Assembly (NCBI GenBank): GCA_947179485.1
Contig: OX359247.1
Span: forward strand, 57,013,131 to 57,077,130
Source: Allacma fusca
Taxonomy: Eukaryota > Arthropoda > Collembola > Symphypleona > Sminthuridae
DNA length: 64,000 nucleotides
Reading direction: 5' to 3'
Position numbers and translations under genes: made by a program. Position 1 is the first letter of the stretch. Every line of letters starts with the position of its first letter. Shown here in pieces: positions 29,886 to 62,850 of the stretch. The notes below the pieces were generated by a model that made no database searches, was not told the origin of the DNA, and saw nothing but the letters and a program-made list of their open reading frames with translations.

Positions 29886-30028
29886 TTTGGGTGTGTAAGC
29901 ATTTTAAAAATTGTGCACTCATGTTTGTGAATATATTAGGTAGCCATAGTAACTATTAAATGTCAGATAAAATACCTATCCCAATTTATACCGAATAATG
30001 TTTCATAATTAGCTTATACAATCAAGCA

Positions 30029-32782
30029 TTAAAACTCTTTGTTGTACAGAAATCTTTCCACTAAATCCAATGCCCATTCTGGCTGATCTCGAATGGCATA
30101 ATTTCCAGCATTACGAATCATGGCATAGACAAAGTTGTCAGTCGCTTTAATGTAACCTGCCACGTCTCCATTGACTCTCCAGATTTTTCTCGTGGCTTTA
30201 GAGTAATCGTCCTTTCCCTTCCATTTAAGGTTGTTGATCAATCTTGTCAAGCTCTGTTGTACGGTACCCATGTCAAATTGTGCCGCATAAAAGAGTACGC
30301 GGTAGCCCCGGTCGAGCATTTCCTGAATCAAGTCCTCATGAGCACCAGCAAATTCCTTCGTAAAGCGAGTGTAGATATTTGGGTCCCCATTGATGAATTT
30401 GTGGAGCCCCACATGAAGATAGTTATGGATTTCTTTTGAGTCGATGAACTTCAGGAATTTGCTATCATCAAGTGGAGGTTTGTCCATCAATGCATTTCTA
30501 TAGTCCAGGAACCCAGTGGTGTTTTCAAAGAGAGAGCCTGGACCGGTTATTGTAGTCAAGAAAAGCTGTGAATTCCATTTTAAGCACGCAAATTTTAAAA
30601 TTCAGGAAGTTTAACTATTTAAAGTATATGCGCACATGTATTCAACTCATAACAAATTAAGTATTGACATGGCCTTGTAATTTGGTCGGCGATTTCAGAA
30701 TGTCAAAGCAAAATTTCTAGTTTTTCCTGTAGTCACATAAAAGTGAGTTTAAAAACACTTTGATATTTTAACTTCGCAGGCAATTTTGGTGGGAATTTTT
30801 CGTACACATTTCCATCACAGACCTAACTTGGGTGGTGCGAATAATCCAAGAAGGGAATGACAAACATGTTTTTGACTTGACCATGTCATTGTCTGTGTAG
30901 ATAGATATACGTAACGGTGAGAAAGGAAAAGTGACTTGATTCTTCTGTTGACACCCCGTAATGCTAGAAAGAAACAAAACTGAACATACCTCTGATGCTT
31001 CTTGAATGTTTCCCTTGTTAAACTCTACCAATCCTTTACTCATGACATCATCAAACTTCTTCTTTTGCTCTTCATCAATCAACCCAAAGTTGTACAAGGT
31101 TTGTGGCCGATCGAGTTCTTGCTGAAGGTCAAAATATGGAGAGCCTATGACAACTCCCTTTAAATTTATCTTAACATCACTTTTTGAATTTTCCAAATCA
31201 ATGTGTCTAACGACGTATGGAATCAATGTTGCTATAAACATAAATACATACAAATTATTCTGAAAAAAATATTTAGAGGCAATAGTTATTCGGGTTTTCA
31301 AGACCATTTCTTTTACCAGCATAAGTTTCTCCGGCTAAATAGAAATCTCGTGGCTGAAATTCGTTGAATAGTATAAAAAATTGCTTTAACGCCTCGTAAA
31401 TTTCGATCGCTTCTTCGTCCGAATTATTTGCAAACGCTTTTTCATTGTTAGCAAAACTGAAACCTTCAGAAATAATTGAGAACCAGCAGGTCAAGTAGGG
31501 AAAACATGATAAGGAAGGATTTGAAAATTAATTGTACTTTGTCCTTAAATAAATGCATTTAAGCTTACCAGATCCCACAGGGGCGTCAATATATAACATT
31601 GAATGTGTTTTTGTCCATGTCACATTTCTATCCTTCACAACGTTGTTTTCCTTCAGTTCGAAGGGACCCGTTTCTAAGAATATGCCTTCCAGAGAACTAA
31701 ACCCAGGAAAATCGTTCACCCATAGTATGACTGGGGCTTTGTCAGGATTTTCCTGTTCAATACAAGGACGATCATTAAAAAGCTGGAGCTGTATAAGATG
31801 GTCTTTATAATGGTCTGTTCTAGCCCCAGAAATGCTTTAGGATTTGAAATTGCAGTATACTAAATGATCTGTATCTTTGAAATTGTTCTCACTTTACAGG
31901 TCAAAATTGGTTGCTTCAAAATAAAGAACGCTCACTAGTAATACTTTAAATTTCAAGCCTGTTATGTGTATATAACAAAAATTAGTAATATATTGTAAAT
32001 TGTAAGCAATAATGTCACAGAATATGCAGAACACTAATTTGGAAGAACACTCGCATAAAACGGTTTTAATGTTATTGGTTTTCTTGCCGTCTTTATTGCT
32101 ATGTTTGACATGTGACCTTTATTGTTGTCATTCACTTTACTTCTGTCAGTTCAAAAGGTGTATTTTACGGTTAATAGTGCTTTTATATGTGTAAGTTACA
32201 AGTGACTTTCTTAATAGCACCAAAAAATATTTAGACATTCCTGCTGCTAAGAACGCTAGTTTTTCTCATTATATGTGTATAGAATTGCAACAATAAAAGA
32301 TTTTAGGCTTTAAGGGGTAGTACTTTAAAAATCTTCTCTACAAATGTTCGGGACATTTTTAAGTGATTTTATCCAAAAGCAAAGAGCTTTTAAATGAACT
32401 AAATAAAAACAACAGACGCATACATTTCCTAATGTAACACAGCGCCCCAAAGGCAATTTAGGACGTCATAAATGTAAATTGTACTTACATTTCTATGCTA
32501 TATGCTTATTTTAGTCAACATTTTTATTACCTGAGCAGGAAAGAACCAAAAAAATAGATTTGAATTGGTACTTTCGTCGATTGTGAAGAATCCGCTGTAG
32601 CTCTTTAGATCCTTTCCAGTTCGAATTAATTTGGTACTGTCTTCAGCGCTAGCTCGAGCCTTGACCAAATCGCCGCTTTTGATTAAAGGTGTCAAAAATA
32701 AATCACCTTCAGTCGCTGAAGCGAAGAATGGTAGTGAGCATAGCCATAAAAGAATGGCCACCAAAAATGAGCGTTTCCCCAT
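30029..32782 (-). CDS. serine carboxypeptidase-like protein (S10 fold) lacking catalytic Ser and His, left copy
   Basis: Five exons on the minus strand: 32782-32531, 31752-31569, 31463-31317, 31231-30990 and 30565-30029 (453 residues, usual for CPVL-type S10 proteins). A signal peptide occupies residues 1 to about 23 (hydrophobic LVAILLWLCSLPFF, then ASA), so the product should enter the secretory pathway. Family landmarks are LFFWFFPAQ at the end of exon 1, PVILWVNDFPGFSSLEG (family WLNGGPGCSS), GETYA at 190-194 and VLFYAAQFD with Asp373 kept. The nucleophile position is Thr192 instead of Ser, and the His of AGHxVPxDQP is Asn430 (AGNYAIRDQP). The oxyanion-loop glycines are also changed. It should not be an active peptidase; a binding or scaffolding role is possible. 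All frames are open and splice sites normal. The sequence is identical to the copy at 35640-38393. Confidence 0.88.
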
Positions 32783-32941
32783 TTTCCGAGTTATGTCGCA
32801 AAATCACCAGATAAGCTGACAATGAGAATGTGATGTCACATAGACAACCGTTGTTTTTTACTTTTCAGAGTGTAATTGAGAAATGCTGATTGCAAACCTC
32901 AAATTGTGAATGAGTGAAAACCTGAAGAAGCACAACAAAAC

Positions 32942-33636
32942 TAGTGCATCGCATGGGTTCAAAACAGTCGAACCTGTACCTGAACCTGGACCCAAACTTT
33001 GGGTACCTCAAAAGCGTGAACCTGTACCTGAAAATGTACCCATTTCACAGGTTCAAATTTTTCGATCCTGAACCTGACCCAATTGCGTTTTTGTAGTACC
33101 CGCACCTGATTAGTACCTGAACCCGAAAAAGTACCCAAAAGACGACCTGAACCCGGGTATTTTTGGACCGGACCTGAATATGTTTGGGTACTTGAGAATC
33201 CAAACTTTTTTAAATTTTATCTTGTATTAAAAGTACAATTGGGTATTTGTAGTACAAAATATATTTAAAATGCATAAGAATGAAAGTTCACTGGTTCCTG
33301 GGACACCCTGCCATTGCTTTTGCGATGGAAATCATTTGGGAAGCTTGAATTCTCCGGCCTTTAACTTTCAATCAATGAACCCAAACATTTCAGGTCTTTT
33401 GCGATCAGGTTCAGGTCTTTTATGTGTTGCACCTGGTCCTGACAGGTAAAATCAAACCGGGTTTTTCTCTGTACCTGGTCCTGAACCTGAACCTGTACCC
33501 AATTTTACGGGTATAAAATATTGTACCCAGAAAGGACCCAAAATTATTGGGTCCAAAATAAATGAACCCATACTGAACCTGAACCTGGACCTGAACCCAA
33601 ATACCCGGGTGCGACCTGAACCCATGCGATGCACTA
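32942..33636. mobile_element. hAT element, CAGGTTCAGG family, upstream of the left carboxypeptidase-like gene
   Basis: The element is 695 bp with ends TAGTGCATCGCATGGGTTC / GAACCCATGCGATGCACTA (perfect inverted repeats) and the 8-bp duplication AACAAAAC (32934-32941, 33637-33644). Nearly its whole length is CCTGAACCTG / GGGTACC words. It lacks coding capacity. The left arm of the large inverted duplication ends inside it, 27-29 bp before its terminus. Confidence 0.88.
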
Positions 33637-34612: not shown

Positions 34613-34812
34613 NNNNNNNNNNNNNNNNNNNNNNNNNNNNNNNNNNNNNNNNNNNNNNNNNNNNNNNNNNNNNNNNNNNNNNNNNNNNNNNNNNNNNNNN
34701 NNNNNNNNNNNNNNNNNNNNNNNNNNNNNNNNNNNNNNNNNNNNNNNNNNNNNNNNNNNNNNNNNNNNNNNNNNNNNNNNNNNNNNNNNNNNNNNNNNNN
34801 NNNNNNNNNNNN
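34613..34812. other. assembly gap, 200 N
   Basis: There are exactly 200 undetermined bases. The round length suggests a scaffolding placeholder rather than a measured distance. It lies at the centre of the large inverted duplication and cuts a hAT element on each side. Confidence 0.99.
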
Positions 34813-35480
34813 CTCGGGTATTTGGGTTCAGGTCCAGGTTCAGGTTCAGTATGGGTTCATTTATTTTGGACCCAATAATTTTGGGTCCTTTCTGGGTACA
34901 ATATTTTATACCCGTAAAATTGGGTACAGGTTCAGGTTCAGGACCAGGTACAGAGAAAAACCCGGTTTGATTTTACCTGTCAGGACCAGGTGCAACACAT
35001 AAAAGACCTGAACCTGATCGCAAAAGACCTGAAATGTTTGGGTTCATTGATTGAAAGTTAAAGGCCGGAGAATTCAAGCTTCCCAAATGATTTCCATCGC
35101 AAAAGCAATGGCAGGGTGTCCCAGGAACCAGTGAACTTTCATTCTTATGCATTTTAAATATATTTTGTACTACAAATACCCAATTGTACTTTTAATACAA
35201 GATAAAATTTAAAAAAGTTTGGATTCTCAAGTACCCAAACATATTCAGGTCCGGTCCAAAAATACCCGGGTTCAGGTCGTCTTTTGGGTACTTTTTCGGG
35301 TTCAGGTACTAATCAGGTGCGGGTACTACAAAAACGCAATTGGGTCAGGTTCAGGATCGAAAAATTTGAACCTGTGAAATGGGTACATTTTCAGGTACAG
35401 GTTCACGCTTTTGAGGTACCCAAAGTTTGGGTCCAGGTTCAGGTACAGGTTCGACTGTTTTGAACCCATGCGATGCACTA
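34813..35480. mobile_element. hAT element, CAGGTTCAGG family, right (mirror) copy, truncated by the gap
   Basis: It is the reverse complement of 32942-33609. The terminus GATGCACTA ends at 35480 and is followed by GTTTTGTT (35481-35488), the mirrored target duplication. About 27 bp of the other terminus would lie in the N run. There is one mismatch to the left copy at the very edge of the gap (34814). Non-coding. Confidence 0.85.
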
Positions 35481-35639
35481 GTTTTGTTGTGCTTCTTCAG
35501 GTTTTCACTCATTCACAATTTGAGGTTTGCAATCAGCATTTCTCAATTACACTCTGAAAAGTAAAAAACAACGGTTGTCTATGTGACATCACATTCTCAT
35601 TGTCAGCTTATCTGGTGATTTTGCGACATAACTCGGAAA

Positions 35640-38393
35640 ATGGGGAAACGCTCATTTTTGGTGGCCATTCTTTTATGGCTATGCTCACTACCATTCTTCG
35701 CTTCAGCGACTGAAGGTGATTTATTTTTGACACCTTTAATCAAAAGCGGCGATTTGGTCAAGGCTCGAGCTAGCGCTGAAGACAGTACCAAATTAATTCG
35801 AACTGGAAAGGATCTAAAGAGCTACAGCGGATTCTTCACAATCGACGAAAGTACCAATTCAAATCTATTTTTTTGGTTCTTTCCTGCTCAGGTAATAAAA
35901 ATGTTGACTAAAATAAGCATATAGCATAGAAATGTAAGTACAATTTACATTTATGACGTCCTAAATTGCCTTTGGGGCGCTGTGTTACATTAGGAAATGT
36001 ATGCGTCTGTTGTTTTTATTTAGTTCATTTAAAAGCTCTTTGCTTTTGGATAAAATCACTTAAAAATGTCCCGAACATTTGTAGAGAAGATTTTTAAAGT
36101 ACTACCCCTTAAAGCCTAAAATCTTTTATTGTTGCAATTCTATACACATATAATGAGAAAAACTAGCGTTCTTAGCAGCAGGAATGTCTAAATATTTTTT
36201 GGTGCTATTAAGAAAGTCACTTGTAACTTACACATATAAAAGCACTATTAACCGTAAAATACACCTTTTGAACTGACAGAAGTAAAGTGAATGACAACAA
36301 TAAAGGTCACATGTCAAACATAGCAATAAAGACGGCAAGAAAACCAATAACATTAAAACCGTTTTATGCGAGTGTTCTTCCAAATTAGTGTTCTGCATAT
36401 TCTGTGACATTATTGCTTACAATTTACAATATATTACTAATTTTTGTTATATACACATAACAGGCTTGAAATTTAAAGTATTACTAGTGAGCGTTCTTTA
36501 TTTTGAAGCAACCAATTTTGACCTGTAAAGTGAGAACAATTTCAAAGATACAGATCATTTAGTATACTGCAATTTCAAATCCTAAAGCATTTCTGGGGCT
36601 AGAACAGACCATTATAAAGACCATCTTATACAGCTCCAGCTTTTTAATGATCGTCCTTGTATTGAACAGGAAAATCCTGACAAAGCCCCAGTCATACTAT
36701 GGGTGAACGATTTTCCTGGGTTTAGTTCTCTGGAAGGCATATTCTTAGAAACGGGTCCCTTCGAACTGAAGGAAAACAACGTTGTGAAGGATAGAAATGT
36801 GACATGGACAAAAACACATTCAATGTTATATATTGACGCCCCTGTGGGATCTGGTAAGCTTAAATGCATTTATTTAAGGACAAAGTACAATTAATTTTCA
36901 AATCCTTCCTTATCATGTTTTCCCTACTTGACCTGCTGGTTCTCAATTATTTCTGAAGGTTTCAGTTTTGCTAACAATGAAAAAGCGTTTGCAAATAATT
37001 CGGACGAAGAAGCGATCGAAATTTACGAGGCGTTAAAGCAATTTTTTATACTATTCAACGAATTTCAGCCACGAGATTTCTATTTAGCCGGAGAAACTTA
37101 TGCTGGTAAAAGAAATGGTCTTGAAAACCCGAATAACTATTGCCTCTAAATATTTTTTTCAGAATAATTTGTATGTATTTATGTTTATAGCAACATTGAT
37201 TCCATACGTCGTTAGACACATTGATTTGGAAAATTCAAAAAGTGATGTTAAGATAAATTTAAAGGGAGTTGTCATAGGCTCTCCATATTTTGACCTTCAG
37301 CAAGAACTCGATCGGCCACAAACCTTGTACAACTTTGGGTTGATTGATGAAGAGCAAAAGAAGAAGTTTGATGATGTCATGAGTAAAGGATTGGTAGAGT
37401 TTAACAAGGGAAACATTCAAGAAGCATCAGAGGTATGTTCAGTTTTGTTTCTTTCTAGCATTACGGGGTGTCAACAGAAGAATCAAGTCACTTTTCCTTT
37501 CTCACCGTTACGTATATCTATCTACACAGACAATGACATGGTCAAGTCAAAAACATGTTTGTCATTCCCTTCTTGGATTATTCGCACCACCCAAGTTAGG
37601 TCTGTGATGGAAATGTGTACGAAAAATTCCCACCAAAATTGCCTGCGAAGTTAAAATATCAAAGTGTTTTTAAACTCACTTTTATGTGACTACAGGAAAA
37701 ACTAGAAATTTTGCTTTGACATTCTGAAATCGCCGACCAAATTACAAGGCCATGTCAATACTTAATTTGTTATGAGTTGAATACATGTGCGCATATACTT
37801 TAAATAGTTAAACTTCCTGAATTTTAAAATTTGCGTGCTTAAAATGGAATTCACAGCTTTTCTTGACTACAATAACCGGTCCAGGCTCTCTCTTTGAAAA
37901 CACCACTGGGTTCCTGGACTATAGAAATGCATTGATGGACAAACCTCCACTTGATGATAGCAAATTCCTGAAGTTCATCGACTCAAAAGAAATCCATAAC
38001 TATCTTCATGTGGGGCTCCACAAATTCATCAATGGGGACCCAAATATCTACACTCGCTTTACGAAGGAATTTGCTGGTGCTCATGAGGACTTGATTCAGG
38101 AAATGCTCGACCGGGGCTACCGCGTACTCTTTTATGCGGCACAATTTGACATGGGTACCGTACAACAGAGCTTGACAAGATTGATCAACAACCTTAAATG
38201 GAAGGGAAAGGACGATTACTCTAAAGCCACGAGAAAAATCTGGAGAGTCAATGGAGACGTGGCAGGTTACATTAAAGCGACTGACAACTTTGTCTATGCC
38301 ATGATTCGTAATGCTGGAAATTATGCCATTCGAGATCAGCCAGAATGGGCATTGGATTTAGTGGAAAGATTTCTGTACAACAAAGAGTTTTAA
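35640..38393 (+). CDS. serine carboxypeptidase-like protein (S10 fold) lacking catalytic Ser and His, right copy
   Basis: Exons are 35640-35891, 36670-36853, 36959-37105, 37191-37432 and 37857-38393, all GT-AG, 453 residues. The mirror image of 30029-32782 has the same translation, so it has the same signal peptide, Thr192 for the nucleophilic Ser, conserved Asp373 and Asn430 for the His. If the inverted duplication is real, the two copies diverge from each other like a head-to-head gene pair with about 2.86 kb between their ATGs, and both promoters flank the palindrome centre. If it is an assembly artefact, this and the left copy are one gene. The start is supported by the signal peptide that follows it. 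Confidence 0.85.
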
Positions 38394-39405
38394 TGCTTGA
38401 TTGTATAAGCTAATTATGAAACATTATTCGGTATAAATTGGGATAGGTATTTTATCTGACATTTAATAGTTACTATGGCTACCTAATATATTCACAAACA
38501 TGAGTGCACAATTTTTAAAATGCTTACACACCCAAATTTATAAGTCTTCTGAAGTTTTAACCTTTGAATTAGAAGAACAATGCTTCGTACTTAATCTAGG
38601 ATTGCACAAAATAGCCCGATTACTAAAATATTTGATCAATTTGTTTTCAAAATCAGTAAACCCAACTCAAAAGTTTTCAGCGTAAATTGTTATCCATCCA
38701 ACAGAACAATAAGACATTAAGACTCAGTAGCCCCCTAGTCATGCTCGAAAAGATTTTATTTAAAGTAATCCGTATAGACTACGTAACCCAAGAGAAAAAT
38801 TGAATTTAGGAAGGTATAAAGTCCTTTGAAGTTTTAACTTTTGATTTATGAGAACAATGCTTCGTACTTAATCAGGGATTGCACAAAATAGCCAGAATAC
38901 TAAAATATTTGGTCAATTTGTGTTCACAATCAGGAAATCCAACTCAAAAGTTTTCAGCGTAAATTGTTATCCGTCCAAGAGTACAATAAGACTCAGTAGC
39001 CTCCTAGTAATGATCGAAATGATTTTTTTTTAAGTAATCCGTATAGACTACGTAAACCAGGAGAAAAATTGAATTCACAAAAACACAGGGCGAGCATTAC
39101 ATTTTTTATTGGGTGCACGTACTACCAGGTTGAATGATTAACTCTTCGGCTCTGAACGTATTAGACTTCCATAATTATTGGAATTACAATTCTTGTTAGT
39201 TGTATCAGATTATCTGAAAAAGCTTGTGATACACAGGAATAAAAAAATAATTTTAATCAGGTTATGCATTTTAAGTTTAATCGTATTTTACACTTTAATG
39301 TGAATCAGGGGCTATTATAATTCTACCATTAGTTAGTAAGTCATTAATAAGAACCAAGTAATGGCTAATCATGTTCAGTTAAATTGGACAGTAGATTGCA
39401 CACCT

Positions 39406-40654
39406 CTAGTTCCTCTCGGTCATGACAACTTTAAAATCCTTAGGTGAAAGCAAACATCCAGGGTTAGATTCGAAGGTAGCATTGGGATTTTCATCGGCGA
39501 GTCGAAAACTGAAACGGTGGAGCATGTTAGCCAGGAAAAAAAAGACCTCATCTCTTGCCAACGTTTCTCCCAGACAAACGCGTTTACCGAATCCGAAGGC
39601 TAAGAGGGCATCCGGTTTTTGGTATGCATATAATTTCAGAAAAATTGTGTTGTGCGACGTAATAAAATTCTTACTCCCATTATCCTTGTAAAGACTGGAA
39701 TTTAGATCTGTCGTGGCCTCAATTTCCTTGATATAAGCATCCATAGAATCCCTGGGTACTCCATTCTCTGGGAAGGATTTTTTGTGCTGGTCTACGTGCC
39801 CTAACGTTATGCTCCTCATAGCCTTCACCAAATCCATTAGCTCTCCCCAACCGGACAATTTTAGGATTAACTTTGCCAATCTCGGCATGAATATAATTGA
39901 AATGTTGCTGGCGAGCTTCTCCGATAATCTGTTAACAATGCAGTGCAAAATTACAACATAAACTTGCTTCAACAAATACACATATGTATTTATTTAGTTG
40001 TATTTAGAGGTGTTGGTATCTTCTTACTCTTTGTTTTAATTGAAAACGGACCAAAGTCGTTGGTCGTCTTGCTCATAACGAACTCCTGCCATAATTTCCC
40101 ACAATGTATTCAACACTGCCATCTGGAAGGTTCTGTTTAGCTTCACGGGCTGGCCCACCTGCTTCGTAAACCCTCCCAAGAATTCATTCATTTCGTTCAT
40201 AACCAATTCCTCGCTGACGTTCTTCCCAAATCCGAAGTCCCGAAGGTGACGGCGCGTATGCCGCCGTTGATCAACCCACTCCTGACCAGAGGAGTTCAGC
40301 ACTCCTAAGAAAGCAAAATGATACGAAAGGTTTTGAAAAAAACAAAATGAATAATATTTTTGAAACAAATTTTCCTTGCAGCATTTTAGCATAAATACTA
40401 ATTGGTTCACTTTATTTTTGATTTCTCGAAGCCATTATTTCATTTTGCAATATTGTGAGCCTCCGTGTAGAATATTCTCCCAATTGAAAGTGCATTTAGT
40501 TCATTTATAATTAGTTATTATAATTTCATATATAATTAGTTTCACATACCGTGTGGCCCATCCGAAAAAGGGTAAACGATTCTTCATCAATTCGCCCAGC
40601 GAAAGCAGGATCGTTGTACACTTAATTAATTTTAAGTCGTTTATAACGTAGCAT
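39406..40654 (-). pseudogene. cytochrome P450 copy C, broken
   Basis: Minus-strand remnants of exons 3 (40654-40550), 4 (40304-40028), 5 (39928-39675) and the last part of exon 7 (39622-39406). Exon 3 has lost about 5 nt (AATTAAGTGTAC where copy B has AATTAAGGAAGTGTAC, and one T fewer near 40567), shifting the frame. Exon 4 gains a TAA at its end (TTCAATTAAAAC where B has TTCAATAAGAAC). A deletion of about 0.66 kb joins intron 5 at ATGCATACC to the AAAAACCGGATGCC of exon 7, removing all of exon 6, the I-helix and the ExxR segment, with a CC shared at the junction. The haem loop [11 protein letters not shown] survives. Exons 1 and 2 are absent; homology ends at about 40660 where the copia-type element begins. 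The final 49 bp are identical to copy B because they lie in the inverted-repeat arm. Confidence 0.88.
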
Positions 40655-40664
40655 CTGTAGACAT

Positions 40665-42360
40665 CTCTACATAATAACGGCCACTTGATGGAGTCTGTGG
40701 CTATTTAAATTGCGCGCTCTTCTACTGGTTTGACAAGAAATTTACCGCGTCAATCACATTTTTATAGGTGAAGTTCTTGGTGCTCTGGTAGTAGACTTGT
40801 CTAAATGAGGACTCTTCGTCCTTTACAAGTAGGTAGTACTTGCTACCTCTAAATGATTCTGTTACTGCATGAACCAGATCTGCGTGCAGACATTCTCCAG
40901 GCTTATAGTGTACAGTTTTTACAACTGACTTATACGGCGTTTTCTTTGACTTTACAAGGGAGCATGACTTACATGCTGTGTCTTCTAGCTGCATATCTTC
41001 AAGTCCATATACAGCTTGCTTGTCCTTGGTTGCTCTCAAAACATTAACATTGATGTGAGCAAGGCGCTCATGCCAAGTAATTGGTTTGACACAAACTAGG
41101 ATTCTGTGCTCAATGGGCCTGAACTGCTTAATGTGAAGCCCATTCTTCCTTACTGCTTGAACATGTGCTTGTCCGTCATTATAAAAGGTAAAGACATTGC
41201 TCTTCCCTTTGGTTACTTCAAAACCTGTCTAGTAGAAGATTTTCGGAGAATAAATTTGCCGATCCAGGAGAATAGAATACGTTAATTAATTCTATTTCGG
41301 TCCAAGTACCACTGATCAGTGCTTGGAGCTTGATTTTCACAACACCTTCCGCAAGCATGTACGTGCCGTTGGCAATTTCAATTTTAGATGGTGTTAAAAA
41401 TTTTACATAGTCAGTGTACCAATCTAATCGTCCGCAACAATGGCTGGTAGCACCTGAGTCGTTTACCCACGCATTATTGGATTCTCCGACCATGTAGGCC
41501 TTTGTTAACTGTTGACTGGCATGTTGCTGTTTGCTCTGATTTGCATTAGAATTCTGCCCGTTAGAGGCGTTCTGATGTTTCTTCTTGTCGGGGCATTCCC
41601 GACTCAAGTGTCCAATGTTTTGGCAATTGTGGTACTTGGTTGTCTTCTTAAGCTGTGCTATTTCTTCTTTGGTTTTTCGTGGTTTGTTTCCACCGTTTTG
41701 GTTTGCTGAGAAAGCTTTTGAGCTTTTAGTTTTCTTCTTAGAGCCATTAGACTCCTCATGTTCTAATTCCCATGTTTTTAAACGGGAGAGAAGTAGAGCA
41801 GAGGTCTGTTGCGTTGAGTCGACGGACCTCCAAGCTTCGCGAAATTGTCTAAATCTTTCAGACATTAAGCTCGATATAACTCTGGCAATGATTGCATCAT
41901 CATCAATTTTCGTGCCCACACTTCCAAGTTGGGCTGCTAAGTTCTGAATTTCACACATCGTGCGAACGGGAGAATTGCAGTGATCTTCCATCACTCCGTA
42001 AAACTTCTGAAACAGTACTTGTTTCGATTCTCCAGACGTACTCTGATGCTATTGTGCAGCTTGAGATCTTCTCAACTTCGCTATCTGACATAGTTAATAA
42101 CATGGAGGTAAATGCGTCTTAATTAGAGTCTCGAGTCCCATTTGTCTTTGGGTGCTACCAGTTGTGGTGGGCCTGGATTTTGAACCATTCAATATGTCCA
42201 TAATATTCATTGAGGTGAAACGACTGGTCATCCGCATTCTCCAAACTCGGTAGTTTTCATCCCCAGTTAGTTTGGAGATAGCTGCGGTGTCAAACTTCTT
42301 TGTAGAATTTACAAAAGTATTATTTACCCTTGATGCTCTACTTGTGGTTGTCATTTTGAT
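40665..42360 (-). pseudogene. Ty1/copia-type Gag-protease-integrase fragment
   Basis: Read on the minus strand from 42354. The Gag N-terminus (42354-42094) has the copia hallmark KLTGDENYRVWRMRM and a VNG-like ILNG block. After a frame break near 42040 comes the Gag C-terminus with a zinc knuckle (41630-41570; NCQNIGHLSREC, the first Cys replaced by Tyr). The protease motif NDSGATSH follows (about 41475-41450; Asp-Ser-Gly). A second break near 41218 precedes the Gag-pre-integrase zinc region (ACKSCSLVKSKKTP) and the start of the integrase core (ECLHADL with its first Asp), ending at about 40722. The rest of integrase, RT and RNase H are missing. Known copia order is Gag-PR-IN-RT-RH, so this is a 3'-truncated copy. 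Confidence 0.85.
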
Positions 42361-43150
42361 AACTTTTTTTAACTTGCACAGGATAAAAAATAATACTTAA
42401 AAGTTTAACTACTGTCTCTCTGTAAAAACAGAGCTAAGGCACAAATTTTGTATGCACAAAACTTAGTTATTGCTACTAGAGTCACGTCTTGAACTGCTAT
42501 CCTTTTACAGGATTATTGAAGCACACTTTCAGTTTTTGTAGGCACAAAACGAAATTCAATTCTGTTAAGAGAAAATGAATTCTTCACTTGTGTGCTTGCG
42601 CTTACAAGTTTTTTACTTTTGCATTTGCAGCTTCGTGCTTTATAACGTTTAAAAGTAAAATACTTTGCTACACAGGTTCGAGTTAAGTTTATTCGGTTAA
42701 GCACACGTATTTATACCAGATAATGTTTACAGATTATTGCTTAATCTAAAGAAACAATTGATCAAAGATGAAGAAATTAACAGGAAATTGGGCAAGAGTC
42801 CTGAAGTGACAAATTCCTATAGAATTGAGATACTATAAGAACGAGCGAGAAAAAGAGAGGCTCTTGGACTTTTATGACCCTGTCATAAATACCCATAAAT
42901 GCTGCATTGACAAATACCAATGTCATTGCAGCTTGATAGTTCGAGGCTTAACCTATGCGGAGAGTTTGCTTCAAGTGTGTTCCAGCTTACGCTGCATTTT
43001 CTCCATCTTCATTTTTGCTATTCATATTGCTCAATGATAAACATGACACAAATACTTCTGACTTTTAATGTATGTTTGTATCTCTATTGTATCTCTATTT
43101 TTAACACCCTCTTTAATCTATATATTTTTTATATCTAGATTACATTACAT
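42361..43150 (-). mobile_element. LTR-like region and leader between the envelope-like gene and gag
   Basis: On the minus strand this 0.8-kb stretch has LTR-type signals: a TATAAATAC box at about 42714-42706, an AATAAA about 25 bases further on (GAATAAACTTAAC), then a leader running to the Gag ATG at 42354. It lies downstream of the envelope-like gene and upstream of gag, as expected where two tandem copies share one LTR. The exact LTR ends and a primer-binding site could not be assigned. Confidence 0.5.
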
Positions 43151-44745
43151 CATTCGGTTTTAACAAAATAGTTGTTCATCGTGGAATTTCTTCCTGCTTC
43201 TTGACAGAATTTACTTCTGTTTTTCTGGTCTTGATCTTGAACCAGGTTTTCCTGAATGCATTTTTCATTACGCATAATAACATAGCTATTGCTAACAACG
43301 TTACACTTATTATTAGACAAATTTCTGTAAATGACCACTGCTCATTATGAAATTCAAATACACGTAAGTTTTTCACTTCAGTCTGAATTTCGTTTTCGTT
43401 GCGTGTCCATTATTGATCAAACTCGGCTGTTAAGTTGCTCCATTTCATGTTGGGATTTAACTGCCAGTTAACTTGCTCTGTCAGCAGAGGATCTTGTTTC
43501 TCTCTCCAGACAGTCTTCAGTATTGAACCCTTGTATTCGATCTCATTAAGAGTGAATGTAGCTGAGAGTGGGAGAGTAAAACCCTCTTCTGGACAGTTGA
43601 TTTTCTTCTTTCCTACTGTGTACTGACTTCCAGCGCAATAAATGAAATACTTGTTTTAAAATACTTTCACTTGGATAAACTCCTTTTCATCACCAGTTTA
43701 CGCGACTTTACATCGTTCTACTTGAAAGAGTTTCATTTATCCAAATGAGAGATTGTGGTTGCAGTTCATTGACATTCCAAGAGTCATTTTTTCGGATTGT
43801 GCTCTGTTGAAAGTGTTATACACAGTCTTCAGTTGTAGATAATGTTGCTAGTGCTGGACATTTATACACTAGTCTGCATGTTTCATTTCCTTTGATGAGA
43901 CGAAGTCCAAATGGATCAGCCTTAACTTGTAACAGGCTTCTATTGACTATCGGTACTGAAAATTCCAGTGTGACATCAGTTCTCTCGGATCCCATAGTGC
44001 ATTTGTGGAATATACCAAATTCAATAGGACATTCTTCTGTGCATGGCAAAGTAATATTGAGAAATTCAAATAGATAGGATTTTATTTCCTGTATTTTCCA
44101 ATTTTTATCAGTGTCTCGGATTATGCGTTTTCCTTCTAGTAGATTTCCTATTAGGTCTGAAATCACATAGTGCAGTTCCATGGTCTTTAACTTGAAAATG
44201 TCCACTTCCATCAAAAGTTGGTCCAGCTGAGAGGTTATTTTCCGGATTTCCATTTGCAAGAGTTTTAACCTCTTATTTGAAGTGTACACAAGTTGATCTA
44301 CTGCTTGTTTCAGTTCTTCTTGTTTAGTTTCCAGTGCATGTTCTTGACACTGCAAAACCTGCTAGTCCTACTCCAGCGCTTACTACTGCTACAATAACAA
44401 TGAGACCGGCTGTGAAAACAAATTGTTTTTGTCTTCTAAAGGTGATCTTGTCTTTAGGACAGATTTTCTCTACCTGCTTTCGGAAAAGTTCTTCATATTT
44501 GTCTTCACACTCCTTTGTCATGTTTCTGTAGATCTGTACTTCTATGCCTTCTGCTGGCAACATGGAACAAGGAGATACTAGCTGTAACTTCATTGTAAAG
44601 GCGTTAAACCCTACAATCACTGGTTGATGACGTTTTCTCCAAATGATAGGGCTAGTGCTTGTAGCTCCACTTATTGTGATTAGGAACCATAGTATTGCTA
44701 ATGTCCAAAGAAGATTATTATCCGAAGAATCCCGAGATGTTCTAT
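43151..44745 (-). pseudogene. envelope-like membrane glycoprotein gene of a retroelement (locus 1), broken
   Basis: Minus strand. The N-terminal segment (to 44324) begins with a hydrophobic signal-like stretch (LLWTLAILWFLI) and ends with RRQK followed by a glycine/alanine-rich hydrophobic segment (about 44455-44350), like a furin-type site plus fusion peptide. Next comes a heptad-rich region (44340-44100), a CTEECPIEFG cysteine block and N-glycosylation sequons (about 43816), then frames interrupted by stops (43380-43810). The last segment (43376-43176) has a transmembrane anchor and a basic tail. Layout is that of a class-I-like fusion glycoprotein; it is collinear with 60920-62293. Breaks are a frame change at 44324-44355 and several stops in the ectodomain. 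The virus family it came from is not recognised. The first about 30 codons of the longest frame (44746-44839) belong to a neighbouring repeat, not to this gene. Confidence 0.7.
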
Positions 44746-45440
44746 TGTCGGCTATAGTTTCCTTTCTGGAACACGACACCAGATATATTCTTGGTTTACA
44801 AGGTCTGGTTCGAACTACACTAATTGTCGTTTGTTGCACCAGGAAAAATCCTGGTACCAGACACTTAGCGCAAAAGATTGTACATAAATTGGTATCAATT
44901 CAGGCTAAACCGGTACTGGTTATGGAAATTCTCTTAAGATTGACAACTGACAATCTAACAATTGTGATTACACTGGTACTAGCATTGAGAAGTCCTCGTA
45001 AAGTGTATATACCAGATATTAAAATCTTCATATTTAACGTACTTCTTCCACAGATTGTATTCCTCGTCTACGACACGCTTGTCCAGTAGAATTAACATAA
45101 CATGAACGCCCGAAGCGACGGGTTAGGTTTTCAAACCCGTAAATTCGGACTGTGCACAGAACTTGTCAATATCTAATCATTGACCTTACCGGATTCTTCT
45201 TCCATAAAACCTAGCCCCAAAACAAAGAACCAATTTTTATAACGTGCCCTTTAACATACTTTTTTCCTGGTGTAGCAAATGTCTGGTACAATTGTATTGC
45301 ACCACGGTACACGCTATTATAGCTTACATTACTTGCTCCAGGTATTTTCCCCAGTACAAGCCATTAACAACGTTCACATATACTGTATTGCGCCAGATAT
45401 AATCTCCATGTAAAATCCCTATGTACCAGGTAAGAACGTG
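44746..45440. repeat. fragment of the GGTATA/ACCAGG palindromic element family
   Basis: Homologous to 18007-18300 and, inverted, to parts of 21940-23760. It includes CGAAGCGACGGGTTAGG near 45108 and ACGTGCCCTTTAAC near 45241. The open frame at 44643-45089 on the plus strand crosses this repeat and the envelope relic and is not a gene. Confidence 0.55.
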
Positions 45441-48400
45441 AGGGCTCCCTTGGGACCACGGAAGCTGTTCTTGGGATATGCCATTCTGCGCGCAATTCTT
45501 TGCAGCACTTCACTTGAACAACTCGAATTGGCACTGGTTCACACCATTTACGCTCGAAGGACCAATGTTTTGCTTGATGTATGGCTATGGGTGGATGTAC
45601 CATGAGATGAGTTTGTGAAACTAATATGCGAATGTAGGAAACTGAGATGGTTTTACTGAACCAAAAATATAAGATTTCAATAATGAAAATATTGGAACTG
45701 GAAAAAGAGTCAGTAGTTTTGTTTTTATAAATTATAGTCCCTAGCTTTAGTTTTTGCAATAGGTCATAGAAATATTCACATTACTAAGAGTAGGTTAATT
45801 AAGTATAAATAGACGTAGGGTAGGGGTTTCCCCACTGATAGTGCTGGTTTAGAGTAGGTCATTTTGATAAGATGGCTTGAGTTCGCTACATTACCATAGC
45901 TTGTCCGTTAAATAAATGTACGTAAATAAACACCGACCCCTAACATCCTACAATCCTACTTGTTTGACACCAATGGTTGAAGACATGCAATTCTACGATA
46001 GTCATCTTATTAAGCCCAGCTTTCGGCTGCAACCACTATTATGTGACCCTGAAGCTCTTTTCTCTCTCTGCTTAAATAGTTGCTATCTTCCTATTGATAT
46101 TATGCTGACTGCAGCTCTCGGCTACCTCAATTCATCCATTATATAACGTGACCCGGAAATATGAACAGAAATATCGTCACTCTCTGTTTAAATATACACT
46201 TAACATACTTTTTATCCTTAAATTGCTTGACTATATTGGTTACAGCGCAGTTGTTGTAAAGTTGGCCGGAGCCTCAAGTGAATATGTCCAAAAAGCCAGC
46301 GGTTCAAACGTGTTAGCACGATTTAGTTCTATTTACATAATTTGTTTTTTGTAGTATCTTTAAAGAGATGTCTTAAATTTGAATCCCAAGTTGTAAATAT
46401 ACCGGATGACTTCGGGGATTATAATACCCGCCACCCGAACTTCGGATGTTTTAACAATTCCTCTCCTCTTTAGTTTTGGGGTCGTAGTAGCCAGTAAAAG
46501 AAATTTAAACAGAATTTCAATCTTTTTCACCAATTCTGATCTCAATTAATACGTTACAAATAAATAATAATTTATCCCGGTAAGTTCCAAATTGAAGTTG
46601 GATTGTAAAATCATTGCATGCTAAAGTTTATGGTGTGTTTTATATAGAACGAATTGGTATGAACCAAATACAATGTTTTTTGAAATATGTAAAACTGTAT
46701 GTATCTCAAGCTTATTAATTATTACACATGCTATCGAGAAAACAAGATATTCCATTTTGTTTTATGTTAGTGAAACTTGTAACCACAAAATAATGTTTCA
46801 CTAAATCAGTGAAGTAATTTTTTAAAATCGCAGATCAAATTTGCTACACACTTAGGAGATCAATTCTGCTGCGAATCAACCCCTTACGTAGGCTAGACTA
46901 CTCTGAAAATACTTTATATCCGTATAAAGCACAACGATGTTAAACAAATATTGCACAATTTTTTAAATTAAATTGTTTTGTTTTTAGTAAATCGGCACAT
47001 CCTGAATATCAAAAGATGAAATTTCAAGATAACATTGAAGGATAATCTTTAAAATAAAATAATTTTAGTCCAACAGATGTAAAGATACCTCCGGTCTAGT
47101 ATAGCGGATGTAAGAGATAGATAGAAATTTATTTATTTCACTGACACTTCAACAGTGCTTAGCTAAAGACACAGTATATTCAGTTCTAATATTGTAACTA
47201 CAATTAGTTCACATTTTATAGCATTAACTTTATATATTTATATTATACAAGTGATTATGAGCTCCTAAGCTAATTATAAGATCCTCTAATAACACATATT
47301 ATTGTTTCTTCCAAAAATTCTTTCCTTATACCAAATCTATTCCGAAAATCTTCAAAATGTTTAGTTATCGTACCACGAGCCACAATCATCAATCCAATGA
47401 CTTCAATTGTTTTCACACCATATTTTTGTTGAAAATATGGAATACAGGGTTCATAAATAGATTTTTTCTCTTGATCAACATCGTTAGGCTGGTGATTGTT
47501 GGATCTATAATTAAACATGTCTTATTCCTCTTATCAATGTAAAAGATGTCAACTCTTCTGGTTGATCCATTTGTTTCCAATTGCAGGAATGATAAAATCA
47601 TTGCTAATTTGTACTGGTTGATTAACTGACATTCCGTTGCTAATTACAATAGCCTTACATTTACTTGGGTTTGAGTTATACCCGACTTTGTTCACATTAA
47701 ACAACGCTATTCGACCCAGCTCAGTAGCTTCTTCTATTGAATCCGATGCTACTGCTAAATCATCTGCAAATCCCGCATTGGTAAATTTCATGACATCAGG
47801 ATGTATTTCAAAACCGTATCGATTTGCTACTTCTATTTCTGAAAGCACTTTATGAACATGATTAGTTGAGATGTTAAATTGTAAAGGTGAACATGGTAAG
47901 CCTTGATGAGTCATTATCTGGGTTTGATTACCTTGCATCAAATCGATAGACATGTTCCTCAAATTTGTCGGCATTATTGCATGTTTCATTGAAAGTATCA
48001 TATGATCATGAGATGATTCTTCAAAAGCTTTATCAACATCAAAAAATAAAATGCAACAGCTACCCCTCTGACGTTTTGCCTTTCGGAGAATTCCAGCTAT
48101 AATGGATGAATTAATTTGACATATGGGTGTATGAACAAATCCTCGTTGATTTTCATTAATTGTAACAAATTGACGTAGTATCTTGTCTACTACTCTTTCA
48201 ATGATTCTTCGCATTACGGAACAAATAGATATTGGTCTCCAATTTCTTATATAATTTTTATCACCCTTCTTCTTATAAATCAAAACAGTATGATCTTTTC
48301 TGAATGATGTTGGGACAATATTCCATTTTTGCATTATGGATGCAATTGATGCTATTACATTTTCAGATTTAAGCCTTTTGACACTTCTGATAGTTACTTG

Positions 48401-49099
48401 GTCCAAACCAGCTCCAGTATCAATGTTTATTCCTTTCAAAGCATCCAAAATTTCATCCGGTGAAATAATTGAAGTATATCTATCATCAATACTATTTTGT
48501 AATGTGAGATAGCAATTTGTAAGTGATTTAGTACAGTTTAAATGACAGCAAAAAAATTTGTGGCTGTATGATACGAATAATACTGTAGTTGTGTATACTT
48601 GTTTGTATGTATATAGCTCTTAATATATCTAACACCAATAGATGAAAACATCAAATTATGCGATAGTTATCTTATCCCAGCTTTCGGCTGCAACCATTAT
48701 TATGTGACCCTGAAATGTGAAAAGGCTCGAAGCTCTTTTCACTCTCTGCTTAAATAAATACGTACTATCTTCCTACTGATATTATGCTGACTGCAGCTAG
48801 ATCTATTCAATGGACAAGTAGTTTATATATGTGCGTATATATTTGTCGACTTATCTGCATTCACACTTCAAAGCAGAATCATTGTTACCCTTGAGTGACT
48901 GGACCTAAATGCAAAATTTGTATTTGTACCCGACTTTTTCAAGCCGTACAGTGAACTTTACTCACTTATAATAGCTTATTATACATTATATGCATAAGTA
49001 GGTGTGCCCTTGTGTTCTATGTAATTAAAGCGAATCAATTATGAGTAAGCTTAATGTACGTTGAAGTCTACTGAGTAAGAAATGGTAAAATGCATCTCC
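45441..49099 (+). repeat. duplicated 5' flank of P450 copy D
   Basis: Collinear with 18380-20750 upstream of copy B, apart from the R2-like insertion at about 47105-48525. The TGTGACCCTGAA...CTCTGCTTAAATA module occurs at about 46041 and 48705. No host gene is recognised. It shows that copies B and D arose by duplication of a segment starting more than 2.8 kb upstream of the gene. Confidence 0.65.
47105..48525 (-). pseudogene. R2-like non-LTR retrotransposon, 5'-truncated
   Basis: Minus strand. The frame 48448-47549 (and upstream to about 48500 with a SPDEILDAL start) is a reverse transcriptase of non-LTR type: GLDQVTIRSVKRL, NWRPISICSVMRR, FFDVDKAFE, QGLPCSPLQFN and FADDLAVAS (catalytic DD). 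After a frame break the tail has RRVDIFYIDKRNKTCLIID, which fits the RPD-x(12-14)-D core of the restriction-like endonuclease of R2/NeSL/Hero elements. The end (47518-47270) has VIGLMIVARGTITKHFEDF and a final EETIICVIRGSY helix seen at the C-terminus of R2-type proteins. The N-terminal zinc fingers are missing. The insertion is defined by its absence from 20090-20190. Confidence 0.8.
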
Positions 49100-53163: not shown

Positions 53164-53864
53164 GTTCTGCATATTTGATCCTACAGAAAAACTGCTATAA
53201 GTATGGTAACATGAGTTCACGGAGTACTTATACATACATATGTAATTACATGTAGAGCACTCTCTTTATAAGAGATGATTTGAAAGGAGCAAATTTTGAA
53301 TTAAAATGACATACAGGATCCTGTAGGAAACAGAATTAGCAAGTTATACATGTACTAACATTTTTACCTTGTAAGTCGGTCTCTGCTAGAAAGAATAAAA
53401 TCCAATGGCTGTGCTATAATAATCAACAAGAAATATAATGTGAACTCAAATGATTATGTTGTATGTCTACAGATGCTACGTTATAAACGACTTAAAATTA
53501 ATTAAGGAAGTGTTCAACGATCCTGCTTTCGCTGGGAATTGATGAAGAATCGTTTACCCTTTTTTTGGATGGGCCACACGGTATGTGAAACTAATAATAC
53601 ATGAAATTATATTGTTGGTGAAGAGGCAAAATGAACTAAATGCACTTTCAATTGGAAGCATAATCTACACGGAGCCTCACAATATTGCAAAATGAAGCAA
53701 AGGCTTCGAGAAATTAAAAATAAAATGAACTAATTAATATTTCTGCTAAAATCCTGCAAGGAAAATTTGTTTAAAAAATATTATTCTTTTCGATATTTTA
53801 TCAAAACCTTTCGATCATTTTGTTTTCTTAGGCGTGCTGAACTCCTCTGGTCGGGAGTGGGTTG

Positions 53865-55525
53865 GGGAGCATACACAAATTACGTCACTCAAAAAGGCCG
53901 AATTTTCAGACCGTCCCACCCCACCATTACCATTTGTCATTTATTGCTGAATCCACCCACCCTGTACACAGATGATGTCACTACATAGACAAACATGCTG
54001 TCGCGCCAAAATCACTCTTATAATACAAACGTTTGGTTCTGCGCTTTGAATTCAAGAGCAAGAAGAAATATCAATACGCACATCGCCTCATTCGTTTTAA
54101 CGCGCAACCGGCCTAATGATCAGAGCTGCGCTCAAGTCAAGTAAATCCCAAACTTGACCCTGAACTTGACTTGACCCTGACAGTCAAGTAGGTTTTTCAG
54201 ACGGTCTTGAACTTGACGGTTCATGGTCAGACAATTACTTGAAAATTCAGGGTCAAGTATTCAAGTACTTTCCGCGTAACTTGAACCTGGTCAAGTATAG
54301 CAGGGACAACTCTTGACTTGACCATGACTTGACCATGACCCGAACTTGAACTTGACTTGAACTGTCAAGTTTTTAAAAAAATAGAAATAGAAAAATAGTA
54401 TTCACACTTAAAATACACCAAGTACACCATTTATGGTTAAAACTTAGCAAATAACAATATTATTCACAATTGTCAAGCTTCTCCAAGTAAATTTTGAGTT
54501 GCTGCTTCAGTTGGATATTTTAATGTCTTGTGTTTTAGTTTTAGCCAACCTTCAATCACGAGAAACTACGAATAGTCTCTGCTAATTGTAAGGTAAACAG
54601 TCTTTTAGAAGTAAGTAAATCATTTCCCATTGAATTTTCCTGTTAATAATAATTACTTACGCTAACATTCAAGTTTGGGTTGTGCTTCACTGAAAATATC
54701 TACAGTTCAGCGTCCACCCTGTTAATGAAACAAACTGGCTTATGTGGTAGTGTTTAACGTTTTACAGATGTTAAATTGTTCAGAATGAAAAGAGTACTTG
54801 GATTTAAGTAACTTGATTGATTAACAACGCGTTTATTTTATACAACAATCGAACATTGAACACTGTTGCTTTCATAGGTGCTGCTCCAAAGTTTTTATAT
54901 TCGTTTTCTTTCGTTCACTATTACAGCTGTGGCTTTCCAATATCTAGAGATATTGAATCGTAACCCAAAAATATGTAGTTTAGAAGAACATGTATGGATA
55001 CGGAGTCTCGGAGTAACGATAACATTATGAAAGAAAACCTATTGAAATATATAGTGCCACAACTTCGATATGCGTAACGTTTCGTTACTTGAATAAGTAC
55101 TTGAAATACTCATGGTTCATGGTCAAGGATTTATAAATTTTTACTTGACCATGAACATGACTTGACTCTCAAGTAGAATTTTTTGTCTTGACCATGATAA
55201 CTACTTGATTTCAAATCCCAGGGTCAAGTAGAATAAATAACTTGACCATGCCTTGAATGTTCAAGTATCCATTATATTTTACTTGACCATGACCCGAACT
55301 TGACCATGACTTGAAATACTCATGGTCTACTTGAACTTGAGCGCAGCTCTGCTAATGATCTATCTTCGGTTTTTAATCAGCTGCAGAGAATATTAAAAGT
55401 GATTCCAAAAAAATGTTGGTATATTAATCTTTGCATATCTGAACCCCACTACTATGTCATCAATGGTCACTAGTTACTGGAACTACCTACGCACTCTGTG
55501 GGTGACGTAATTTGTGTACGCTCCC
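53865..55525. mobile_element. PIF/Harbinger-like element in exon 4 of copy D
   Basis: Inverted ends GGGAGCATACACAAATTACG / CGTAATTTGTGTACGCTCCC extend to about 24 bp. The flanking 3-bp duplication is TTG (53862-53864, 55526-55528), and the uninterrupted site GGGTTGATCAAC is seen in copies A and B. A 3-bp duplication and GGG ends point to PIF/Harbinger, although TTG differs from the usual TWA. It contains no transposase; a 1.2-kb hAT element is nested within it. Confidence 0.7.
54121..55351. mobile_element. hAT element, CAAGTCAAGT/CTTGACC family (nested)
   Basis: Terminal repeats CAGAGCTGCGCTCAAGT / ACTTGAGCGCAGCTCTG are perfect. The 8-bp duplication CTAATGAT (54113-54120, 55352-55359) is perfect. 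Subterminal regions 54135-54370 and 55095-55345 are made of CTTGACCATGACTTGAAC words. No coding capacity is recognised in the interior. Confidence 0.9.
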
Positions 55526-59980: not shown

Positions 59981-60633
59981 TCTCGGTAAAATCAGAAAGT
60001 CAAAATTTTATCCTTGTATAAGCCGTTACACAAAGCTGTTGACACGAGGCACAACAAAAATGGAATGATGAAGATGTAGCCGTTGGGTGTATATGAGCAT
60101 TGTAAAAAGCTTTAAAAAGTTGTGGCGCAAGCCCACAGATGGATACTACATTGTGTCATATAGAGGACGAGTCGCGAAATATAATCAATATTCACCATAC
60201 GTTATCTAGCACGAATGCTAAAACCAAACTCACTGCAAAAGTGATTGGGAAGATTGTTTTCCGCCGTGAAAATTTTCAAGCTAATTTTAAAGACTCCGGA
60301 GAGGTTTTTCTTTGAAATTACAGAGTGCAAAACTCTTGTGCGATTTTTGTTTTCAAAGAGAAGAAAAATATCAAGTTTCATTTTACGAAAATTGTTGACG
60401 TACAACATTGAAGATTAAAAGTGATAAACTTATAGACAGTTCCAGAATCACTTTTCCCCGGTACAAAATAGTGCAAAACTATTTTACCCACAACTACGAA
60501 TCCCGACGTTTGATTAAGTTGAAACTTTCTGTGACTACAGAAGAAAGTGTGTACTACAAGTTTAAGTGCATAGAGAGTGACCAAAAATTCCGCAAACGAA
60601 TTTATACCCAAGAAGATTATAGTTGACACGCAA

Positions 60634-60915
60634 AATGTCCACTACCACCAACAATCACTCGGAGATTCGAAACTGCCTCTTTTACAAAGCTGAATGGGGA
60701 TAATTACCTGATCCGGAAGACAAGGCGGATGAGTGTATTTACTGCACACAAGATTATGGATGTCGTGGATGGATCTTTGACCAAACCATCTACATCTGGA
60801 GACAGCCGTGACAAGTGGGACCAAGCCAACTCGAAGGCTTTAACAAGTACGTATCTTTCTATGCATGATGATGAGGAGGTAGATAGAGTTTCGGGGTACA
60901 AAACCTCAAATGAAG
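60634..60915 (+). pseudogene. copia-type Gag N-terminal fragment (locus 2)
   Basis: ATG at 60634 (MSTTTNNHS). A frame change near 60660-60680 leads to SFTKLNGDNYLIRKTRR, then MDVVDG and SGDSRDKWDQANSKALT, SMHDDEEVDRVSGYKTS. These are the ordered landmarks of the UBN2/Gag domain of Ty1/copia retrotransposons; the otherwise conserved Trp after NY is changed. The frame joins directly to envelope-like sequence near 60915, so about 4 kb of pol is missing. Confidence 0.8.
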
Positions 60916-62293: not shown

Positions 62294-62850
62294 AAGATGC
62301 GTAATAATAGGATTATTATATTAGAAAATTGATTAAGTAAGATGTTCAAATTATTTAGGTAAAACATTAGGAAATAGGATTGACTAATTGTAAGTATGAT
62401 TTGTATCATTATAGAATTTATCATGTATGAATGTCATGAAGTAAAAAGAGGAACTGAATGTGCCAACTAAGGGATAACACACTCACAGCAGAGTTTCAAG
62501 AGAAGGAAACTTGACCGCGAGGATGCAACGCATTGGACTATGCTGACACAACACATTGATAGTTTTATGATGGTAATAAAACTCTCGGGACTGAAGACCA
62601 ACTCAAGACTCAAGACCAGCTCAAGTTTATAGTTTTAAGAGCCTATAAGATTTGTGACACAGTATTTCCCAGATAAAACTTCCTCTTGTCATTTGTACTT
62701 TATTTAGATCCTAAATTCAATTTGATGTAAACTTGGGCTACTTAATTTGTATTTAAAATCCGTGACTTTCGCAGAATAAACACAGACGATCGATTATTTT
62801 ATTCAGAAGAATATAGAGATTATTGCATATAATCAATATTCACAATAGAT

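What the first reader, a model, noticed from the sequence alone, without database searches (positions are those of the whole stretch)
40665..44745. Copia-type Gag/protease/integrase adjacent to an envelope-like fusion glycoprotein gene (locus 1)
Seen: on the minus strand, a broken envelope-like gene (signal-like start, basic cleavage-like site, hydrophobic segment, heptad region, cysteine block, membrane anchor) is followed by an LTR-like stretch and then by a Ty1/copia Gag with NDSGATSH protease and the integrase start. Known: metazoan retrotransposons with env genes are mostly Gypsy/errantivirus or BEL/Pao, whereas env-bearing copia elements are described mainly from plants (Sirevirus type). 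Inference: this is one end of a tandem pair env-LTR-gag of a copia lineage that acquired an envelope, i.e. a candidate undescribed infectious-type retroelement family in an arthropod.
Basis: partly seen in the sequence, partly recalled or inferred. Interest (0 to 1): 0.85.

Follow-up and report, generated by a model that had tools for sequence, protein, structure and literature searches.

The report
Springtail copia elements carrying envelope genes
The finding is a decayed remnant of a family of springtail mobile elements that combine a copia-type copying machine with a virus-like membrane-fusion envelope protein, so it marks a probable separate route by which a jumping gene became virus-like.

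Summary
Locus 1 is a broken env-LTR-gag-protease-integrase remnant on the minus strand; locus 2 (60.2-62.8 kb) is a deleted sister with gag joined to env. The window lies in the springtail Allacma fusca. I fetched 20 of 150 copia-RT places: in 20 of 20, one LTR pair with a 5-bp target duplication encloses copia coding sequence and an env-homologous segment, and in 17 one uninterrupted frame (1,910-2,215 codons) runs from within gag past the env membrane anchor. All 101 scored env matches lie beside copia sequence. The env has a signal-like segment, R-X-K-R site, fusion peptide, heptad helix, conserved cysteines and anchor; its predicted fold resembles F-type class I fusion proteins (pneumo-/paramyxovirus F, baculovirus F, arthropod lispivirus glycoproteins). 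RT and env distances agree (Mantel r 0.91); 27 env-bearing RTs fall in one clade of 29 (support 0.99) that includes Folsomia and Orchesella; env is under purifying selection between families; 11 of 20 LTR pairs are identical. Best reading: one ancient capture of an F-type env by animal Copia elements, a probably infectious lineage. Expression, fusion and infectivity were not tested; the donor is open; print novelty was checked only in open-access PMC.

The parts
44324..44899 (-). Locus 1 env, N-terminal piece: signal-like segment (about 44719-44666), short F2-like part, degenerate basic site RRQKQ (44437-44423), hydrophobic fusion-peptide-like segment (44422-44348)
   Evidence: 45% identical to L019/L027 env over 110 aa. 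Part of it (44731-44821) also matches window 17994-18084, so the outermost 5' bases may not be env
43816..44361 (-). Locus 1 env: heptad region and cysteine block
   Evidence: 52-53% to L019/L027 over 177 aa
43410..43655 (-). Locus 1 env: C-terminal ectodomain piece
   Evidence: 65-68% to L019/L027 over 81 aa
43176..43409 (-). Locus 1 env: stem, membrane anchor, tail
   Evidence: 40% to L019 over 81 aa
42514..43106 (-). Locus 1 LTR-like stretch after a purine tract
   Evidence: read from sequence; no blastn match among the 20 fetched copies
42094..42354 (-). Locus 1 gag, N-terminal piece
   Evidence: 40-47% to L019/L027
41218..42048 (-). Locus 1 gag C-terminal part, CCHC knuckle, NDSGATSH protease
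   Evidence: Pol_BBD 4.5e-13; 55% to L019/L027
40722..41228 (-). Locus 1 pre-integrase and integrase start; truncated, host P450 paralogue sequence from about 40664
   Evidence: gag_pre-integrs 2e-5, below cut-off; 51-52% to L019/L027; host sequence
60183..60199 (+). Locus 2: last bases of a truncated 5' LTR, followed by primer-binding-like CGTTATCTAGCACG (60200-60213)
   Evidence: aligned to the L019/L027 LTR end and leader
60635..60912 (+). Locus 2 gag N-terminal part, frame broken
   Evidence: Retrotran_gag_2 3.8e-4, below cut-off; 82% nt to L019/L027
60914..62173 (+). Locus 2 env frame, without signal and start of F2: KREKR, fusion peptide, heptads, cysteines, start of anchor
   Evidence: 87-89% aa to L019/L027; found 101 genome matches
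62343..62847 (+). Locus 2 3' LTR
   Evidence: 80-81% to the LTRs of L019/L027

Best explanation
Locus 1 (and locus 2) are decayed members of a large, partly young lineage of Ty1/copia LTR retroelements of springtails that captured, once and long ago, an F-type class I viral fusion glycoprotein and carries it in the same reading frame downstream of RNase H. Proposed mechanism: Gag and Pol assemble and copy the element as in other copia elements; the Env part enters the secretory pathway by its own signal peptide (from a spliced env RNA or from the long polyprotein), is cut by a furin-like protease at R-X-K-R, trimerises through the heptad helix and fuses membranes with the exposed fusion peptide, so that particles can pass between cells (soma to germ line) or animals. 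Shown: anatomy, LTR pairs, target duplications, linkage, RT clade, co-divergence, purifying selection, fold resemblance. Inferred: expression route, cleavage, fusion, infectivity, number of captures beyond the sample.
For: 20 of 20 fetched copies (of 150 RT places) have LTR pair, 5-bp duplication (mismatched-copy control 5 of 380) and env segment; copia domain order in L016, L019, L023 pieces; 60 of 150 RT places lie in stop-free frames of 1,910-2,216 codons; 90 of 101 env matches have copia RT 952-2,535 bp upstream on the same strand, 0 on the opposite strand, 10 more have copia IN/RT/RNase H upstream, the last is locus 2; R-X-K-R invariant in 12 aligned env, motif, fusion-peptide segment and anchor in 17 of 17 copies; fold; env in Folsomia, Orchesella and metagenome copia proteins, 13 of 120 listed RT hits; clade of 29 with 27 env tips, support 0.99; Mantel r 0.91, 0 of 9,999; env dN/dS 0.07-0.12 in three family pairs.
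Confidence: 0.9

Rival explanations
1. Chance adjacency: an env from a Gypsy or BEL element or another virus happens to lie next to a copia element at locus 1.
For: Locus 1 alone is broken and holds no complete element.
Against: Whole elements with both between one LTR pair, 20 of 20 fetched; 101 of 101 env matches beside copia sequence.
Confidence: 0.01
2. Several independent env captures (or env swapping) by different copia families in springtails, not one capture.
For: Env identity falls to 24% between families; two primer-binding types occur; P0127 and P0021 in the clade lack env by HMM.
Against: One RT clade with support 0.99; Mantel r 0.91 and near-identical deep branching over 18 taxa; env begins at the same place after RNase H.
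Confidence: 0.08
3. The C-terminal domain is a membrane protein kept for an intracellular task (as with doubtful plant env-like ORFs), not for entry into cells.
For: No expression or infection data; the whole product is encoded in one frame, which is unusual for an env.
Against: Conserved R-X-K-R followed within a few residues by a hydrophobic A/G-rich segment, heptads, cysteines, anchor and F-type fold matches with Foldseek probability 1.00.
Confidence: 0.08

Closest known systems
Ty1/copia elements (Pseudoviridae), e.g. Drosophila copia
   Same: Gag with CCHC, PR, IN, RT, RNase H in copia order, RVT_2 RT, LTRs, 5-bp duplications
   Different: Extra C-terminal F-type env in the same frame; frames of 1,910-2,216 codons. 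Drosophila copia as comparison is recalled
Sireviruses (plant copia with envelope-like ORF, SIRE1)
   Same: Copia pol plus an env-like coding region downstream (passages)
   Different: Plant-specific and called the only Pseudoviridae genus with an envelope-like gene, a role called unclear; here the host is an animal, the env has furin site, fusion peptide and F-type fold
Errantiviruses (Gypsy, insect endogenous retroviruses)
   Same: LTR element with an F-type env, thought to come from baculovirus (passages)
   Different: Gypsy pol; here copia pol and one frame
Rotifer TelKA clade with paramyxovirus F-like env
   Same: Same class of fusion protein, same anatomy (passages)
   Different: Retrovirus-like/Gypsy-type lineage; there the env matches Pfam fusion glycoprotein, here no sequence match
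Anakin elements with chuvirus glycoprotein
   Same: Arthropod LTR element with an env taken from a negative-strand RNA virus (passage)
   Different: BEL/Pao pol (recalled) and a chuvirus glycoprotein
Lispivirus/arlivirus, baculovirus and paramyxo-/pneumovirus F-type glycoproteins
   Same: Predicted fold, Foldseek probability 1.00; lispivirus 1 and two related glycoproteins have the highest TM-scores to the query shown (0.36-0.37)
   Different: Not retroelements; 9-13% identity in the structural alignments, so donor relation is only a lead. Family names of the arliviruses are recalled

Membership tests
Ty1/copia (Pseudoviridae) | IN encoded before RT; copia-type gag, RVT_2, CCHC | tested here: met
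   on pieces of L016, L019, L023; window pieces
Ty1/copia (Pseudoviridae) | LTR pair, 5-bp target duplication | tested here: met
   20 of 20 copies; control 5 of 380. One group ends its LTRs in CAATA, not CA
Sirevirus | Plant host | tested here: not met
Sirevirus | Place of RT inside the Sirevirus clade | not tested
   no named Sirevirus was put in the tree; plant hits fell outside the env clade
Errantivirus / Metaviridae (Gypsy) | Gypsy-type pol with IN after RT | tested here: not met
   IN lies before RT
F-type class I fusion glycoprotein | Signal peptide, furin site next to fusion peptide, heptad helix, anchor | tested here: met
   (signal-like segment by hydropathy in 15 of 17; in L019 and L027 only by reading the alignment)
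F-type class I fusion glycoprotein | F fold | tested here: inconclusive
F-type class I fusion glycoprotein | Sequence match to Pfam Fusion_gly or Baculo_F | tested here: inconclusive
   neither appears among the 25 of 32 families shown at E<=1 for 12 env sequences
Retrovirus-like infectious agent | Enveloped particles that enter cells | not testable with these tools
   needs experiments

The most novel reading that the evidence does not exclude
A whole lineage of Pseudoviridae became enveloped, infectious retroviruses of springtails by a single ancient capture of an F-type glycoprotein, encoded as one Gag-Pol-Env frame, and has stayed active up to the present: an origin of animal retroviruses from Copia, independent of those from Gypsy and BEL.
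Probability: 0.6. Interest if true: 0.92.

Novelty: new variant of a known kind. Interest (0 to 1): 0.86.

Why it matters
In the passages that I saw, captured envelopes of animal LTR elements are described for Gypsy-type elements and Anakin, while in Copia an envelope-like gene was described for plants only, with an unclear role. A conserved, selected F-type env in animal Copia gives an independent case for the question of what turns a retrotransposon into a retrovirus, with many young copies, an env-less neighbour group in the RT tree, and a single-frame layout that needs its own way of making Env.

Tried and rejected
Locus 2 env as a single query against 5.8 billion proteins: no hit; the 12-row profile found 7. 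Env against PDB sequences: coiled-coil and other unconvincing matches only. Env profile in IMG/VR: none of 28 pattern stretches encodes a relative. Splicing as origin of the gag-env joint of locus 2: rejected, since the joint lies at a GAAG microhomology with a few further bases and env would lack its signal peptide; a deletion is likelier. Gypsy integrase (PF17921) in the own genome: not completed; BEL was not asked. In the fold searches other class I proteins also appeared lower down (SARS-CoV-2 and torovirus spikes, a filovirus-like and a walleye retrovirus envelope), so the F assignment rests on rank, not exclusivity.

Literature: ten searches used (one search was an invalid request). No title or abstract start that was listed describes an env-bearing animal Copia. 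The library is open-access PMC only; Repbase and most subscription journals were not searched, so novelty in print is not proven. Seen by passages only: PMC10427803, PMC12440569, PMC12992720, PMC3599292, PMC13172572, PMC12693562, PMC11952523, PMC8220671, PMC5408684.

Full report
What was claimed.

What is in the window. Env pieces lie at 44899-44324, 44361-43816, 43655-43410 and 43409-43176, then a purine tract and an LTR-like stretch (about 43106-42514), then gag, CCHC knuckle, protease and the start of integrase to about 40722. From about 40664 downward cytochrome P450 paralogue sequence resumes. Locus 2 at 60.2-62.8 kb has the end of a 5' LTR, a primer-binding-like site, the N-terminal part of gag, then env without its start, then a 3' LTR; pol is gone. 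Compared with the related copy L019 the joint lies at a GAAG microhomology and fits a deletion, not a splice. In both loci gag and env, and in locus 1 the integrase start, have the same nearest family among the 20 fetched copies, L019/L027.

Which organism. The window is G000:C10:57013131-57077130 in an assembly of 392,743,791 bases in 91 contigs. Lengths of C1, C8, C10 and C12 agree with chromosomes 1-4 of the springtail Allacma fusca in passages of PMC10427803 (81.9, 75.61, 66.08, 58.81 Mb). C10 equals the printed scaffold N50 to the base; C1 is about 4 kb shorter than printed, and the paper gives 392,786,974 bp in 95 scaffolds.

Whole elements. A search for copia RT (RVT_2) scored 150 of 221 candidates. 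Of these 150, 60 lie in frames of 1,910-2,216 codons with no stop in the RT match (recounted); most env-less copia hits are about 1,200-1,400 aa. I fetched 20 of the 150, chosen by me to span the frame-length classes and so biased to long frames. All 20 have an LTR pair (97.6-100% identical; 11 identical, 18 at least 99%) and a 5-bp duplication (20 of 20; the same test with the right flank of another copy succeeded in 5 of 380). Elements are about 6.6-8.0 kb. In pieces of L016, L019 and L023 the order is gag, CCHC (sub-threshold in L019), Pol_BBD, gag_pre-integrs, rve, SH3, RVT_2. Downstream of RNase H, in the same frame as RT, lies an env-homologous segment in all 20; in 17 the frame runs on past the membrane anchor (1,910-2,215 codons; L018 starts inside gag), in L012, L013 and L025 the env frame is cut short, and in L012 the frame upstream is broken too. 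Two kinds of primer-binding-like sequence (TGGTAGC... and CGTTATC...) divide the copies as the RT identities do; in L022 and L027 the site could not be read at the reported LTR end. Which tRNAs they fit was not tested.

Linkage. The env of locus 2 found 101 matches (100 of 263 candidates were scored; two of the 101 are pieces of one place). 90 of 101 have a copia RT 952-2,535 bp upstream on the same strand; 0 have one on the opposite strand within 3 kb. For 10 of the other 11 I fetched 2.7 kb upstream, and 10 of 10 hold copia IN, RT or RNase H on the matching strand; in L032, L033 and L035 it is a single domain. The last is locus 2 itself. 61 of 150 RT matches have no partner in the env list, but these include L009-L013, L015-L017 and L026, which do carry divergent env, so this is no count of env-less elements. 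I did not test the rest of the 61. A search for Gypsy pol did not complete.

Relatives. The env profile found 7 proteins, one with copia RT in the same frame (P0001). A search with the RT-RNase H part of L023 listed 120 of 4,615 hits. An env HMM finds env in 13 of these 120 at E < 1e-10, among them Folsomia candida (P0010, part of the profile only), Orchesella dallaii (P0019, P0025) and A. fusca (P0013); the other nine are unnamed or 'hypothetical' proteins of metagenome-type sources. None of the named plant, alga or fungus hits in the list has it, and the second Folsomia protein, P0021, has not either. The other 4,495 hits were not seen. In an RT-RNase H tree of 133 tips (P0044 dropped as too short; sample limited to neighbours of L023 plus 13 Allacma copies; midpoint root) the 27 env-bearing tips fall in a clade of 29 with support 0.99; the two others, P0127 and P0021, end soon after RNase H in a short hydrophobic or unrelated tail. 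RT and env distances over 18 taxa correlate at r = 0.91 (0 of 9,999 permutations as high). Both deep branches hold Orchesella and Allacma members, so the capture is older than the split of the branches; whether the elements were inherited or moved between hosts is open.

Selection. dN/dS (Nei-Gojobori, own script) of env is 0.116 (L019/L027), 0.068 (L021/L023) and 0.078 (L018/L023), beside 0.15, 0.025 and 0.028 for RT; dS is above 1 in the last two pairs. L009/L010 (0.39) and L015/L016 (0.90) differ by few changes; three further pairs were saturated.

How it most likely works. Shown: elements with this layout have inserted recently (identical LTRs, duplications) and env is kept under constraint between families. 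Inferred: Gag-Pol make copia particles; Env is made from a spliced RNA or cut from the long product; a host furin cuts it; the trimer fuses membranes and carries particles into other cells. In 8 of 17 copies no Met lies between RNase H and the first env Trp, which favours a spliced RNA starting upstream, but no RNA was seen.

Known or new. Passages read say that an envelope-like gene in Pseudoviridae is a Sirevirus (plant) trait and that it is unclear whether such plant ORFs code for envelopes; env captures are described for errantiviruses and Anakin and a rotifer lineage. None of ten searches listed an env-bearing animal Copia. I call it a new variant of a known kind: env capture, but in a superfamily and with a single-frame layout that I did not find described for animals.

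Noticed in passing
window 28800-33607 and 34815-39622: A 4.8-kb inverted repeat (99.8% identical, 3.6 kb of it perfect) lies around the 200-base N run at 34613-34812: a palindromic join or assembly artefact.
   Followed up: no
window 58043-60189: Inverted-repeat element with a serine/arginine-rich, gag-like pair of frames on the minus strand, abutting the truncated 5' LTR of locus 2; it looks DIRS-like (recalled resemblance).
   Followed up: partly
window 12312-16810, 27095-29128, 39324-40664, 53165-55733: Tandem or segmentally duplicated cytochrome P450 exons, some broken, with serine carboxypeptidase pieces at 37821-38393.
   Followed up: no
window 47549-48619: RVT_1 reverse transcriptase frame (4.6e-24), probably a LINE.
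   Followed up: no
L009-L028: Two primer-binding-site types split the env-bearing elements into the same two groups as RT identity; one group has LTRs ending mostly in CAATA, not CA.
   Followed up: partly
L009, L016, L017; G000:C8:50.65-51.20 Mb: Some copies sit in minisatellite or satellite arrays (many repeat pairs in the flanks), and nine RT matches of stop-free frames of 1,951-1,958 codons cluster within about 0.55 Mb of C8: insertion preference or array amplification.
   Followed up: no
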